Shown: piece by piece, positions 34,331 through 39,054 of the stretch | Position numbering within the stretch: the first letter of the stretch is position 1 | How the letters are laid out: every line of letters starts with the position of its first letter | Source of the DNA: Acidobacteriota bacterium | Lineage (GTDB): Bacteria; Acidobacteriota; Terriglobia; Terriglobales; Acidobacteriaceae | Length of the DNA: 64,000 nucleotides | NCBI GenBank assembly: GCA_021846985.1 | Contig: JAJZVX010000010.1 | Location: forward strand, 1 to 64,000 | Direction: 5' to 3' | Translations under genes and position numbers: made by a program | Notes under the pieces: model-generated | Database searches by the model: none | Told to the model about the DNA's origin: nothing | Seen by the model: only the letters and a program-made list of their open reading frames with translations

Positions 34331-35077
34331 GTGATTCTCGCTCAACTTGCACATTTTGGTTCGCATACGGTCAGCAGCCTTGCTTTCCTGCTTCAGGAAG
34401 GCGAGCAGACAGTCAACTTCAGCCCCATGGGTCTGTGGGATCACATGGGATGGATGGCCCGCTGCGTGGCTATTCTCCTGTTCATTGAGTCCATCTGGTC
34501 GCTGGCCGTCATGATCGACCGTTACCTCTACTTCGCGGCTGCCCGCAAGCAGTCCCGTGAGTTCGCCCCCAAGGTGGCCGGCGCCCTCAAGGACTCCAAG
34601 CTGGAAGAAGCCATCAAGATCGCCGACCGCAACAAGAAGTCGCACCTCGCCGAAGTCGTCACCGCGGGTCTGCAGGAATTCCGCGCCTCCGGCGGCGTCG
34701 CCAGCGAGGAGACGATTGCCAGCTCCGAGCGTGCTCTGGAGCGCGCCGAGGCGATTGTTCACGCCAAGCTGAAGAGAGGCCTCGCGGTTCTGGCCACCAT
34801 CGGCGCCACCGCCCCCTTCGTCGGCCTGTTCGGCACCGTGGTCGGCATCCTCAACGCCTTCCAGCAGATCGCCACCCAGAAGACCTCCGGCATCGGCGCG
34901 GTCGCTGGTGGTATCTCTGAGGCCCTGGTCACCACGGCGTTCGGCCTGCTCGTCGCCATTCCCGCCGTCATGGCCTTCAACTATTTCACCGGACGTGTGG
35001 AAGCCTTCGACGTGGAGATGGATAACTCCTCGAGCGAATTGGTTGACTATTTCATCAAGCAGAGCCGCAAGCGCTAA
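34331..35077 (+). CDS. exbB: ExbB/TolQ/MotA-family proton channel protein
   Basis: A 248-residue protein with three transmembrane helices. The first, near residues 40-62, contains RCVAILLFIESIWSLAVMIDRY. The conserved channel block GLAVLATIGATAPFVGLFGTVVGILNAF is at about residues 150-177, and GISEALVTTAFGLLVAIPAVMAFNYF at about 194-219. ExbB with ExbD powers TonB. Start GTG 34331 is supported by TTAGGAGGAACG. It precedes two exbD genes. Confidence 0.94.
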   Translation: MILAQLAHFGSHTVSSLAFLLQEGEQTVNFSPMGLWDHMGWMARCVAILLFIESIWSLAVMIDRYLYFAAARKQSREFAPKVAGALKDSKLEEAIKIADRNKKSHLAEVVTAGLQEFRASGGVASEETIASSERALERAEAIVHAKLKRGLAVLATIGATAPFVGLFGTVVGILNAFQQIATQKTSGIGAVAGGISEALVTTAFGLLVAIPAVMAFNYFTGRVEAFDVEMDNSSSELVDYFIKQSRKR

Positions 35078-35230
35078 CTGTGGCGCCTGCCGGTTCGAGC
35101 GAGAATACGCGGCGGGCGGGAGCGCTTGAGCGCCCCCGTCCCCGGGTTCCCGATTCGATCCCTACGCGGGTCGCCCGGTTGAACCGGAGGCCGTCCGGTA
35201 TCACAACTTTCAGGTAACGGAGCCCCAACG

Positions 35231-35668
35231 ATGGGAATCGCAAAACGTGATCTAAGCAAAGCCGTCAACTCCAACATCAACGTCACGCCCATGGTCGACG
35301 TGATGCTGGTGCTGCTCATCATCTTCATGGTCATCACCCCCATGCTCCAGAACAAGGTCGCCATCGACATGGCCAAGGTCGCCAATGCCGTCAATATGCC
35401 CGACGCCGACAAGGAAGACGCCATCGTCGTGGCCATCACGCGCGACGGCAGCGTCTATCTGGGTCAGAACAGGGTAGCCTTGGAGCAGCTTGGCGGTATG
35501 GTCCGCGACCGTTTGTCCGACAAGCCCGGGAAGACGATCTATGTCCGCGCCGATGCGCGCGCCCAGTTCCGGACCGTCGAAGATGCGATCGATGCCGTGC
35601 GCACCGCCGGCGTGGACGACGTGGGTCTGCTGACCCAGAGGAAAGAAGGCAACCTGGCGGGTCAGTAA
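35231..35668 (+). CDS. exbD: ExbD/TolR-family protein (first copy)
   Basis: A 145-residue protein with a short cytoplasmic start, the conserved NINVTPMVDVMLVLLIIFMVITP helix (about residues 15-37, Asp23 as the proton-carrying residue) and a periplasmic domain (GSVYLGQNRVALEQLGGMVRDRL and KTIYVRADARAQFRTVEDAIDAVRTAGVDDVGLLT). It partners ExbB in the TonB motor and lies 153 bases after exbB. Confidence 0.94.
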   Translation: MGIAKRDLSKAVNSNINVTPMVDVMLVLLIIFMVITPMLQNKVAIDMAKVANAVNMPDADKEDAIVVAITRDGSVYLGQNRVALEQLGGMVRDRLSDKPGKTIYVRADARAQFRTVEDAIDAVRTAGVDDVGLLTQRKEGNLAGQ

Positions 35669-35723
35669 CACCCCTCCCGTGCGGGTGCCTTAACGATTTT
35701 GACTGAACGAGGAGTTTCTAGCC

Positions 35724-36161
35724 ATGGCAATGTCAATGGGTGGGTCGGGCGGCAGTATGTCCGACATCAACGTCACCCCGATGATCGATGTCCTTCTGGT
35801 GTTGTTGATTATCTTCATGGTCATCGTACCGGTGACCCCCAAGGGTCTTGATGCGCTGGTGCCCCAGCCGCCGAAGAACAAGCAGCCGGAGAATCAGAAA
35901 CAGGATCGCACCATCGTGGTGCAGGTTCTGTATCGCCCCGGCGCGCCTGTGGCGTACAAGATCAATGACACCGACGTGACCAAGCCTCAGCTCCTGCCCC
36001 AGTTGCAGGATATCTATGCCAATCGCGCCGAGCGTGTCATGTTCGTCAGGGGTGATGACGATGTCAACTTCCAGTCCATCGCCGATGTGATCGACATCGG
36101 ACGCTCGGCCGGCGTTGACCACATCGGCATCATGACGCCCAAGATTATGGCGGGCCAATAA
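35724..36161 (+). CDS. exbD: ExbD/TolR-family protein (second copy)
   Basis: A second 145-residue ExbD with SDINVTPMIDVLLVLLIIFMVIVP (about residues 13-36, Asp as above). Its periplasmic domain differs and has QDRTIVVQVLYRPGAPVAYKIND and RVMFVRGDDDVNFQSIADVIDIGRSAGVDHIGIMTP. Two exbD genes behind one exbB are common in acidobacteria and Bacteroidota; they may form mixed dimers. A GAGGAGTTTCTAGCC site precedes the ATG. Confidence 0.94.
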   Translation: MAMSMGGSGGSMSDINVTPMIDVLLVLLIIFMVIVPVTPKGLDALVPQPPKNKQPENQKQDRTIVVQVLYRPGAPVAYKINDTDVTKPQLLPQLQDIYANRAERVMFVRGDDDVNFQSIADVIDIGRSAGVDHIGIMTPKIMAGQ

Positions 36162-36462: not shown

Positions 36463-37299
36463 ATGAATGGACCCGCACGTATTACGGCGCTCGCGGTTGC
36501 CTTGGCCGGCATGGTGCTTTCCATGAGCGGGTGCAACCGCCTGGCAGCCCGCGACCAGTTGAACAAGGGAGTGGATGCTTATAAGAGCGCCCATTATGAA
36601 GAGGCGATCGGACACTTCCAACGAGCTACGCAGCTTGACCCCACGCTGCCCATGGCCAAGACTTACCTGGCCACCGCGATGGCGCAGAATATCGTGCCCG
36701 GACTGGATACGCCGGAAAACATGAATACGGCTCAGCAAGCCATCGGCCTCTTCCAGCAGGTACTGGCCGTGAACCCCAACGATGTCAACAGTCTCAAGCA
36801 GATCGCCGGCATCTACTTCTCCGTGCGGAAGTTCCAGGAGGCCAAGGACTGGCAGAAGAAGGTTCTGGCTGTCGATCCCAAGGATCCGGAGGCGGCCTAC
36901 ACCATTGGCGTTGTGGACTGGACGCTGGTCCACCAGAACAAGCTGAAGGCTCTGGCTGCGGTCGGTCTCGACGACGACGGCAAGGGCAACGTCAAGGCCC
37001 CCAAAAAGGTCATGGAAGAGCTCAAGCAGGAGAACAGCGCGCTTGTCGACGAGGGCATGCAGTATCTGAATCAGGCTCTGGCCAACCGCGCCAACTATGA
37101 GGATGCCATGCAGTACATGAACCTCATGTACCGCAACAAGGCCGACATGGACTATGGCGACGCCGCCGCCGTCAAGGCTGATCTCGCCGCGGCGGATGAC
37201 TGGACCTCCAAGGCCATGGGCGCCCGCAAGGCTAACGAAGCCAAGAAGAACAAGGGCCCGGGTGGCATCACCATGGACTCCAGCGGCAACCTGCAGTAA
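36463..37299 (+). CDS. TPR-containing lipoprotein
   Basis: A 278-residue protein with a lipoprotein signal (ITALAVALAGMVLSMSGC). Several tetratricopeptide repeats follow: DQLNKGVDAYKSAHYEEAIGHFQRATQLDPTLPMAKTYLATAM, then AQQAIGLFQQVLAVNPNDVNSLKQIAGIYFSVRKFQEAKDWQKKVLAVDPKDPEAAYTIGVV, and the C-terminal helices DAMQYMNLMYRNKADMDYGDAAAVKADLAAADDWTSKAM. It probably acts as a periplasm-facing scaffold; its partner is unknown. ATG 36463 is preceded by GAAGGAGAAGGA. It follows the TonB motor genes and ends in an intrinsic terminator. Confidence 0.85.
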   Translation: MNGPARITALAVALAGMVLSMSGCNRLAARDQLNKGVDAYKSAHYEEAIGHFQRATQLDPTLPMAKTYLATAMAQNIVPGLDTPENMNTAQQAIGLFQQVLAVNPNDVNSLKQIAGIYFSVRKFQEAKDWQKKVLAVDPKDPEAAYTIGVVDWTLVHQNKLKALAAVGLDDDGKGNVKAPKKVMEELKQENSALVDEGMQYLNQALANRANYEDAMQYMNLMYRNKADMDYGDAAAVKADLAAADDWTSKAMGARKANEAKKNKGPGGITMDSSGNLQ

Positions 37300-37321: not shown

Positions 37322-37356
37322 AACGGCCTCCGCTTTGCGCGGAGGCCGTTTTGCTT
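37322..37356 (+). terminator. Rho-independent terminator behind the TPR lipoprotein gene
   Basis: AACGGCCTCCGC (37322-37333) and GCGGAGGCCGTT (37339-37350) form a perfect 12-bp stem around TTTGC, with a TTTTGCTT tail. It lies 22 bases after the stop codon and directly before the group II intron. Confidence 0.85.
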
Positions 37357-37357
37357 G

Positions 37358-37833
37358 GTGCGCCCAGCATGGGCGCACTCTTACGGGTGCAAGTCCCGTC
37401 ACAAGCTGGTGACGGCGAGTGAAGCGAAGCGCAACTGCATGAGGGCGACCGAGTGTGGGGAGAAAGCGTGGAGCGAAGCTGCGGGCCGATGAACAAGAAC
37501 CGGATACAAGGCGGTACCGGCCCGGGCGAGCGGGCAAGCGTCCGCGAAGCTCCCGTGACCTAGGGTCGGCGTCGTACATCCGGCGGTCGTGCCGCGAAGG
37601 AGTGATTCCTGGAAGGCGATGTGTTGGAAATGGCATCAGATGTCCGCATTGGCGGAACGGTCCGGAAGGGGCGAGGTGAAGCCGAGTCTGTTCCGGGCAG
37701 TGATGAAGACCGGCGCCCGCGCCCTCACACAAGGAGCACTGGGTAAACATCAACTTCTCGAACCGCCCGGTGCGGACCCGCATGCCGGGTGGTGTGGGAG
37801 GAAAGAGCGGAAAACCGCTCCCCCTATCCCGAT
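37358..37833 (+). mobile_element. ORF-less group II intron
   Basis: A ribozyme-type element of about 475 nt. Its 5' end reads GTGCGCCCAGCATGGGCGC, as in many bacterial group II introns. It continues with a domain I-like stretch (CGGGTGCAAGTCCCGT), an AAGAACCGGATACAAGGC segment and a domain V hairpin (37762-37793: ACCGCCCGG, TGCG, loop GACC, CGCA, bulge TG, CCGGGTGGT) with a CGC triad. A domain VI-like hairpin ends in CCTATCCCGAT. No reverse transcriptase/maturase ORF is present where domain IV would carry it. It sits directly behind a terminator hairpin, a preferred target of group IIC introns. The exact 3' end is estimated. Confidence 0.85.
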
Positions 37834-37846
37834 TCTCAGATCTTCT

Positions 37847-38923
37847 CTAGTACGAGCTTCGCTTCAGAATCTGCTCCGCGTAGTAGTTGTGCACCTTGGC
37901 CTCGTCGTGCAGAACCTCGAGATAGGCCGACTTCAGCAGTTGCGCGTGACTTTCCCGAAGTCCCTGACGGATGGTCTGTTGCACCCGCGGATCGTTCAGC
38001 TCCCGCTGTCCGGCCGGCTCGCGCGCGATCAGCTTGTAAATGGCGTAGCCCATCACCCGGTGTCCGGGCGACGAGGTATCCACCACCGGGATCACGTCGG
38101 TGATCTGCCCCGGCCTCAGTTTGCTGATCGCATCCCAGGCCAGCGGCTCGCTGTGCAGCGCCGACTCCGGGATGAAGCCCATGTCTCCGCCGCTCGAGGC
38201 CGTGTTGGGGTTCTCTGAGAAGTTCATGGCCAGCGCGCCGAAATCCTCGCCGCTCTGCAGCCGGATCAGCAGGGCCTGGATCTTCTTCCGCGCGTCGGCC
38301 TCGCTCACCGCCTTGCTGTTCTGCAGGTTGCCGGGCTGCTGCGCCGGCATGGCTGTCACCACGATCTGCGCCAGGTGATACTGCGGCTCGATCAGGTTGA
38401 ACTCCGCCTTGTGGGCGGCATAATACGCGCTGATCTCGGCGTCGGTGATGTTGATCTTCGACTCGATCTCCTTGTTCAGCAGCTTCGATTTGGTGAGCGA
38501 CCGCCGCAAATCCCGCTTCAGGTCATCCACCGTGATGTTGCGCTGCTTCAGTTGCCGTTCCCACTCTTCCTGCGTATACGGCGCCTTCATTTCCGTCAGC
38601 TTCGCGTTCACATCCTCGTCGCTGGCCGCCAGGTTCAGCTTGGCCGCCCGCTGCTGCAGAATCTCGTCTTCGATCATCTGGCGCAGAATATTCAGCCGCA
38701 CAATATCGGCCTGCTCCGCGGTGGGCGGCTCGGGGTTGTCGCCCAGCGTGGCCTTGTAGTACTTCTCTAAGTCCGAGCTTAGAATCTCTTTTCCATTGAC
38801 GGTTGCCATCACGTCCGGGGCGGGCGCGCGGTGGCAGCCGCTGACGGACGCCAGCACCGCACCACTGCAGACAGACAACAAGGCAACACGGGCACTCGCG
38901 CGGAACCATCCATCGAATTGCAA
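37847..38923 (-). CDS. SurA/PrsA-like peptidyl-prolyl isomerase lipoprotein
   Basis: A ~358-residue periplasmic chaperone. A lipoprotein signal (ALLSVCSGAVLASVSGC) is followed by VMATVNGKEILSSDLEKYYK, a SurA-type N-terminal helical domain with RLNILRQMIEDEILQQRAAKLNL. A parvulin-like PPIase domain (about residues 175-290) has LAQIVVTAMPA and SGEDFGALAMNFSENPNTASSGGDMGFIPE. The start is probably TTG 38923, behind GGGAGAAG; an upstream TTG (38983) would add 20 residues and spoil the signal peptide. It lies downstream of lptD and the DsbA-like gene and is convergent with the group II intron. Confidence 0.85.
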   Translation of the reverse strand: MQFDGWFRASARVALLSVCSGAVLASVSGCHRAPAPDVMATVNGKEILSSDLEKYYKATLGDNPEPPTAEQADIVRLNILRQMIEDEILQQRAAKLNLAASDEDVNAKLTEMKAPYTQEEWERQLKQRNITVDDLKRDLRRSLTKSKLLNKEIESKINITDAEISAYYAAHKAEFNLIEPQYHLAQIVVTAMPAQQPGNLQNSKAVSEADARKKIQALLIRLQSGEDFGALAMNFSENPNTASSGGDMGFIPESALHSEPLAWDAISKLRPGQITDVIPVVDTSSPGHRVMGYAIYKLIAREPAGQRELNDPRVQQTIRQGLRESHAQLLKSAYLEVLHDEAKVHNYYAEQILKRSSY

Positions 38924-39054
38924 GATTGCTTCTCCCGCGGGGCCACCCAAGGCCCCTGCTTTCAAGAATAAATCCCCGTACAATGGCGCGGAAAAGCCTT
39001 CTACGGCCTTTTCGCAACCTCCTTACAGGGGGCCCCGGCTCTGGCGGCAAGCTT

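What the first reader, a model, noticed from the sequence alone, without database searches (positions are those of the whole stretch)
37358..37833. ORF-less group II intron parked directly behind a terminator
Seen: a ~475-nt element with a group II-type 5' end, a domain V hairpin carrying a CGC triad and a domain VI-like 3' end, but no reverse transcriptase ORF. It begins 8 bases after the perfect 12-bp stem of an intrinsic terminator. Known: group IIC introns prefer sites behind terminator hairpins and use a CGC triad. Inferred: a non-autonomous group IIC-like intron that could be mobilised or spliced in trans by an intron-encoded protein elsewhere, or a dead remnant. Its 3' end is 14 bases from the stop codon of the convergent isomerase gene, so it forms part of that gene's antisense side.
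Basis: partly seen in the sequence, partly recalled or inferred. Interest (0 to 1): 0.6.

Follow-up and report, generated by a model that had tools for sequence, protein, structure and literature searches.

The report
Decayed ORF-less group IIC intron
The segment is a broken copy of a bacterial mobile intron that has lost both its own protein gene and part of its catalytic RNA core; close relatives in other soil bacteria keep that core and look as if they spread by borrowing another intron's protein.

Summary
37358-37833 is a group II intron (RF02001 106 bits; domain V/VI model 37.7 bits, under its cut-off of 40) without an ORF, 7 nt behind a 12-bp hairpin after a TPR gene. It is class C/IIC: an ORF+ relative's RT is closest to GsI-IIC RT and has no En domain, and 55 of 61 mapped copies follow a GC-rich stem. 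Its ORF-deletion junction is shared with a 599-nt copy in a sister genome and a 600-nt copy in a third, both at other terminators and both with that region; the sister genome also has an intact 459-aa RT. The intron is 91-95% alike between hosts whose flanking gene is 63.5% alike at third codon positions, so simple inheritance is unlikely. The window genome has a second ORF-less intron and no match to the class C RT. Best reading: a decayed member of a non-autonomous IIC subfamily. New member of a known kind.

The parts
36466..37299 (+). TPR-repeat protein gene whose downstream hairpin is the insertion site (frame used for comparison; true start codon not determined)
   Evidence: Pfam TPR_2 and others; 79.4% nucleotide identity to L023
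37322..37350 (+). Perfect 12-bp hairpin AACGGCCTCCGC-TTTGC-GCGGAGGCCGTT, the terminator-like target
   Evidence: Sequence; GC-rich stem in 68 of 73 relatives at this place; not found by the consensus scan
37353..37357 (+). 5' exon IBS1 GCTTG
   Evidence: Pairs with CAAGC at 37535-37539, one nt out of the register used for the covariation test
37358..37833 (+). ORF-less group IIC intron, 476 nt, decayed
37439..37608 (+). Part of domain I matched by Rfam RF02001
   Evidence: 106.4 bits
37535..37539 (+). EBS1 CAAGC in an 8-nt hairpin loop of domain I
   Evidence: loop position and covariation over 52 copies
37597..37604 (+). AAGGAGTG: scar of the 123-nt deletion that removed the stretch with domain II, J2/3 and domain III
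   Evidence: alignment to the 599/600-nt copies; RF01998 matches inside that stretch in 11 of 15 loci tested and not in the window's own locus L010
37619..37742 (+). Remnant of the RT ORF N-terminus (about 41 codons) in domain IV; the ORF-deletion junction lies at its end
   Evidence: translations of window, L207 and L208; junction shared with L207, L206 and L247
37761..37833 (+). Domains V and VI, CGC triad at 37764-37766
   Evidence: RF00029 37.7 bits, cut-off 40
37847..38983 (-). Convergent SurA/PPIC-type peptidyl-prolyl isomerase gene
   Evidence: Pfam SurA_N_3, Rotamase

Best explanation
The element is a decayed copy of a non-autonomous group IIC intron. Shown: forms of this intron without the RT gene but with the RNA parts of domains I to VI sit behind different terminator hairpins in two related species, and the window copy has their ORF-deletion junction. 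Inferred: they moved by retrohoming with an RT supplied by a full-length relative; the window copy entered this site after the host species had diverged, then lost domain II, J2/3 and domain III by slippage between two AAGGAGTG repeats, and is now an inert passenger. Splicing and movement were not measured for any copy.
For: Intron models. Same ORF junction in copies that keep the deleted stretch: sister genome G200 has one complete 599-nt copy (L207), a copy split over two contigs whose outer flanks are the TPR gene (L209) and the isomerase gene (L206), and half-copies L210 and L211; a third genome, G409, has a 600-nt copy, 95.2% identical to L207. G200 also has an ORF+ copy (1835 nt) with an intact 459-aa IEP. 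The 730-nt ORF-less copies L234 and L235 are identical over all 730 nt and have different flanks in two genomes. EBS1/IBS1: 138 of 208 possible Watson-Crick pairs over 52 copies, permuted mean 84.4, SD 5.5, 0 of 5000 as high. Intron identity to G200 copies 92.4% (L207), 91.1% (L209) and 95.3% (L206), against 63.5% at third codon positions of the TPR gene. Class C IEP query: 0 matches in the window genome, at least one match in 11 of 11 other genomes with ORF-less copies (several of these are remote or fragmentary, 31-37% identical). Deleting the conserved GA of J2/3 gave almost no splicing in a IIB intron (PMC6224600, passages).
Against: The window genome is a 48-contig assembly, so an RT in an unassembled repeat cannot be excluded. 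That the deleted stretch is domain II-J2/3-domain III rests on RF01998, on a covarying fold (which predicts mainly the part I read as domain II) and on recalled IIC anatomy. RF00029 is under its cut-off. Domain I still scores 106 bits, near the 110-123 bits of L121, L207, L208, L209 and L247, so decay is recent or partial. In the EBS1 test the window row (2 of 4 pairs counting one wobble) and the C10 row fit poorly; they pair only if shifted by one. The copy at the same terminator in G200 pairs only 2 of 4.
Confidence: 0.82

Rival explanations
1. A still functional minimal intron: domains II-III are dispensable here or supplied in trans, and the 476-nt form is itself mobile.
For: Domain I, domain V and VI and a 5-bp EBS1/IBS1 pairing (if shifted by one) are retained; some differences from L207 in domain I look compensatory by eye.
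Against: J2/3, part of the catalytic triplex, is absent; 40 of 50 copies with at least 400 nt of sequence keep its AGTCAGC motif, and several of the 10 without it are decayed. In the listing for 80 genomes of the genus no other hit shows this gap (G391 has a different, larger one); the junction itself was not searched for. No class C RT match in the genome.
Confidence: 0.04
2. Vertical inheritance: the intron was at this terminator in the common ancestor of this species and G200 and decayed in place in one lineage.
For: The same terminator is occupied in both; the 123-nt deletion between repeats looks like decay in place.
Against: TPR gene 63.5% identical at third positions, intron 91-95%; exon tails and EBS1 loops differ between the two copies; 71 of 73 relatives show no intron 5' motif there. 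Strong purifying selection on the intron could mimic this.
Confidence: 0.13
3. Chance resemblance or an unrelated structured RNA.
For: Only the sub-threshold RF00029 score and the empty terminator scan.
Against: RF02001 E 9.5e-21; relatives with an intact IEP between the same RNA parts.
Confidence: 0.01

Closest known systems
Bacterial class C / group IIC introns (GsI-IIC; B.h.I1 and O. iheyensis I1 named in passages)
   Same: IEP of the ORF+ relative L121 is closest to GsI-IIC RT (433 bits; next 316 and 262 bits; LtrA 130, chain 6me0 128), with RVT_1 plus GIIM and no En domain; insertion behind terminator stems; CGC triad; short EBS1.
   Different: This copy has no ORF and lacks the stretch with domain II, J2/3 and domain III.
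ORF-less TeI3 introns of Thermosynechococcus elongatus (Mohr et al. 2010, PMC2882425, passages)
   Same: ORF deleted within domain IV with ORF remnants left; many sites; driver IEPs in the same genome.
   Different: There all 17 go back to one deletion; here at least 4 changes of ORF state are forced on the tree. That TeI introns are IIB is recalled; these are IIC.
C.te.I1 of Clostridium tetani (PMC4424553, passages: the sole known ORF-less bacterial intron without an IEP gene in its genome, as of 2015)
   Same: ORF-less intron in a genome with no intact related IEP found.
   Different: C.te.I1 self-splices in vitro; the window copy is probably dead. The second copy here (C10) keeps the domain II-III stretch, weakly matched (RF01998 28.5 bits, cut-off 35).

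Membership tests
Group II introns | Domain I structure | tested here: met
   RF02001 106.4 bits, cut-off 32
Group II introns | Domain V/VI | tested here: inconclusive
   RF00029 37.7 bits, E 8.9e-6, cut-off 40; only 4 of 15 loci tested pass the cut-off, at 40.2-45.5 bits
Group II introns | Domains II-III with J2/3 | tested here: not met
   123 nt absent; RF01998 passes in 11 of 15 loci, not in L009, L010 (window), L133, L235; not listed at E up to 1 in the window, where one overlapping hit of the same clan was left out of the list
Group II introns | Splicing activity | not testable with these tools
   needs RNA
Group IIC / class C | Insertion directly behind terminator hairpins | tested here: met
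   stem score 20 or more in 55 of 61 copies, in 57 of 1200 control positions of the upstream flanks
Group IIC / class C | Class C IEP without En domain | tested here: inconclusive
   met by the ORF+ relatives L121 and L208; this copy has no IEP to test
Group IIC / class C | Short EBS1 pairing to IBS1 | tested here: inconclusive
   met for the family (52 copies, 138 pairs against 84.4 permuted); the window row pairs well only when shifted by one
Trans-mobilised ORF-less introns | Same ORF deletion at several genomic sites | tested here: met
   599/600-nt form in G200 and G409; 730-nt form L234/L235
Trans-mobilised ORF-less introns | Helper IEP in the same genome | tested here: not met
   0 matches in the window genome; at least one in 11 of 11 other genomes, some remote

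The most novel reading that the evidence does not exclude
In this bacterial family, loss of the RT gene is a recurrent and successful step: non-autonomous group IIC introns arise again and again, hop horizontally from terminator to terminator on borrowed RTs, and end as orphans and fossils in genomes that have lost every helper. ORF-less introns would then be common in some bacteria, not rare as stated in the literature.
Probability: 0.5. Interest if true: 0.55.

Novelty: new member of a known kind. Interest (0 to 1): 0.38.

Why it matters
ORF-less bacterial group II introns are described as rare (PMC4424553, passages). A family with several ORF-less forms next to autonomous relatives offers a natural series from autonomous intron to parasite of a parasite to fossil, and lets one ask which RNA parts an IEP needs to move an RNA in trans. 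This single copy is itself ordinary.

Tried and rejected
Rejected: that the window copy is an intact trans-spliced intron (the stretch with J2/3 and domain III is missing). Rejected as first choice: simple vertical inheritance (identity contrast). Considered: a hot spot at this terminator. L023 has the intron there; L027 has a short 5' motif that may be a remnant or chance; 2 of 73 loci. Left open.

Biases and dropped rows. Loci for searches were picked by me from search rows, with a preference for complete copies, so the 16 to 16 split in the tree is not a frequency. In the tree L242 was left out by name and L212 by length (under 390 nt); L010 and L133 were trimmed; L245 (1542 nt, no IEP match) and L215 (with IEP fragment) were labelled ORF-less, which can add changes. 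A less biased survey used RF02001 in 150 genomes of at least 95% completeness: 39 hits in 21 genomes (with filters that lose weak hits), classed by script as 9 ORF+ with domain V, 2 with IEP but no domain V found, 8 ORF-less with domain V by a loose pattern (L260 and L270 not checked further), 14 decayed or other (one, L144, has a mutated domain V that the pattern missed), 6 cut by contig ends. ORF+ copies are probably cut more often, so ORF-less may be over-counted. The permutation test and the stem test take no account of relatedness. For one search, 15 rows and a corrected L221 were entered by hand from the output; 10 copies with a mapped 5' end had no readable loop and were dropped (L124, L125, L128, L130, L146, L149, L212, L237, L238, L242).

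Full report
Observation. The stretch 37358-37833 (476 nt) reads as a group II intron: GTGCG at its 5' end, CTATCCCGAT at its 3' end. Rfam matches RF02001 at 37439-37608 (106.4 bits, cut-off 32) and RF00029 at 37761-37833 (37.7 bits, cut-off 40). It starts 7 nt behind a perfect 12-bp hairpin after a TPR gene and ends 13 nt before the stop codon of a convergent SurA/PPIC-type isomerase gene. A consensus terminator scan finds nothing there, but 68 of 73 relatives carry a GC-rich stem at that place.

What kind of intron. The best relatives of a neighbouring ExbB gene are records titled Acidobacteriaceae, Terracidiphilus and the like. Full-length intron relatives in the same family are 1803-1978 nt with an RT/maturase ORF. 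The IEP of L121 matches GsI-IIC RT (433 bits) far better than LtrA (130) or the maturase of 6me0 (128), with RVT_1 and GIIM domains and no En domain. Of 61 copies with a mapped 5' end, 55 have a strong stem just upstream, against 57 of 1200 control positions. The EBS1 loop covaries with the last exon bases: 138 Watson-Crick pairs of 208 possible over 52 copies, permuted mean 84.4, SD 5.5, none of 5000 as high. Both copies of the window genome fit poorly in that register; shifted by one they pair over 5 (window) and 4 (C10) bases (read). This is class C / IIC behaviour as described in PMC8919778 and PMC4424553 (passages).

What is missing. Against its nearest relatives the window copy lacks 123 nt between two AAGGAGTG repeats. 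RF01998 matches inside that stretch in 11 of 15 loci tested; the four without are the window's own L010, L009 (28.5 bits), L133 and L235. In the window no RF01998 hit is listed up to E 1, though one overlapping hit of the same clan was left out of that list. The homologous stretch of 13 copies folds with 14 of 27 pairs showing changes on both sides, mainly in the part I read as domain II. I read the stretch as domain II, J2/3 and domain III from the AGTCAGC motif and IIC anatomy (recalled). J2/3 belongs to the catalytic triplex, and deletion of its GA gave almost no splicing in a IIB intron (PMC6224600, passages). So this copy is very probably inert.

Where it comes from. The sister genome G200 (Terracidiphilus sp. 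MAG_BO331, locus L023) has a complete 599-nt ORF-less copy (L207) at another terminator with the same ORF junction, plus half-copies at contig ends. One pair of halves (L209 with L206) has the TPR gene on one outer side and the isomerase gene on the other, so I take it as one copy at the same site. A third genome, G409, has a 600-nt copy behind yet another hairpin. G200 also holds an ORF+ relative with an intact 459-aa IEP. The window copy is 92.4% identical to L207, 91.1% to L209 and 95.3% to L206, while the TPR genes of the two hosts are 79.4% identical and 63.5% at third codon positions. This speaks for arrival after the species split and against simple inheritance. 71 of 73 relatives show no intron motif at this terminator.

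The wider family. The window genome has a second ORF-less intron, 634 nt, behind a hairpin after a murG-like gene (Pfam Glyco_transf_28; the name murG is recalled). It has no match to the class C IEP, only a C-terminal GIIM fragment and a short RT fragment. Other ORF-less forms: 635-642 nt (L131, L135, L137, L218), 730 nt (L234 and L235, identical over all 730 nt with different flanks in two genomes) and shorter decayed ones. On a tree of 32 introns the ORF state changes 7 times, at least 4 forced by supported branches. In 150 genomes, 39 RF02001 hits in 21 genomes split into 9 ORF+, 2 ORF+ without domain V found, 8 ORF-less, 14 decayed or other, 6 cut. Of the 8 ORF-less, 3 keep the J2/3 motif.

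How it most likely works. Shown: ORF loss, ORF-less copies behind different terminators, EBS1/IBS1 covariation in the family, IEP-bearing relatives. Inferred: movement by retrohoming on a borrowed IEP, then decay. Not measured: splicing or mobility of any copy.

Known or new. ORF-less bacterial introns moved in trans are known from T. elongatus (PMC2882425, passages) and are called rare in bacteria (PMC4424553, passages). A library search for ORF-less group II introns with Acidobacteria found one paper; in the passages shown, 'ORF-less' occurs only in its reference list. The library holds open-licence papers only. The window copy is a new, decayed member of a known kind. The recurrence of ORF loss in this family is the part a specialist may want to follow.

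Noticed in passing
L009:2596-3229 (G000:C10:31095-31728): Second ORF-less intron of the window genome, 634 nt, behind a hairpin after a murG-like gene; keeps the J2/3 motif, RF01998 28.5 bits (cut-off 35).
   Followed up: partly
L006:1339-1926 and L007:1402-1527: Two fragments of group II intron RTs in the window genome: a GIIM-domain C-terminus in an open frame of 195 aa, and a 42-residue RT piece.
   Followed up: partly
L027, 66 nt after the TPR gene stop: Possible 5' remnant of an intron directly behind the same hairpin in another genome; could be chance.
   Followed up: no
G408 contigs C292, C223, C181, C156: In four contigs the match to the intron 3' end begins at base 68: a multi-copy intron that seems to break the assembly.
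   Followed up: no
window 34331-36161: ExbB-type gene (Pfam MotA_ExbB) followed by two small ORFs that look like ExbD (recalled, not tested).
   Followed up: no
window 37353-37357 and 37535-37539; L009 around 2592-2595: Both introns of the window genome pair EBS1 with the exon one nt out of the register used by most relatives.
   Followed up: no
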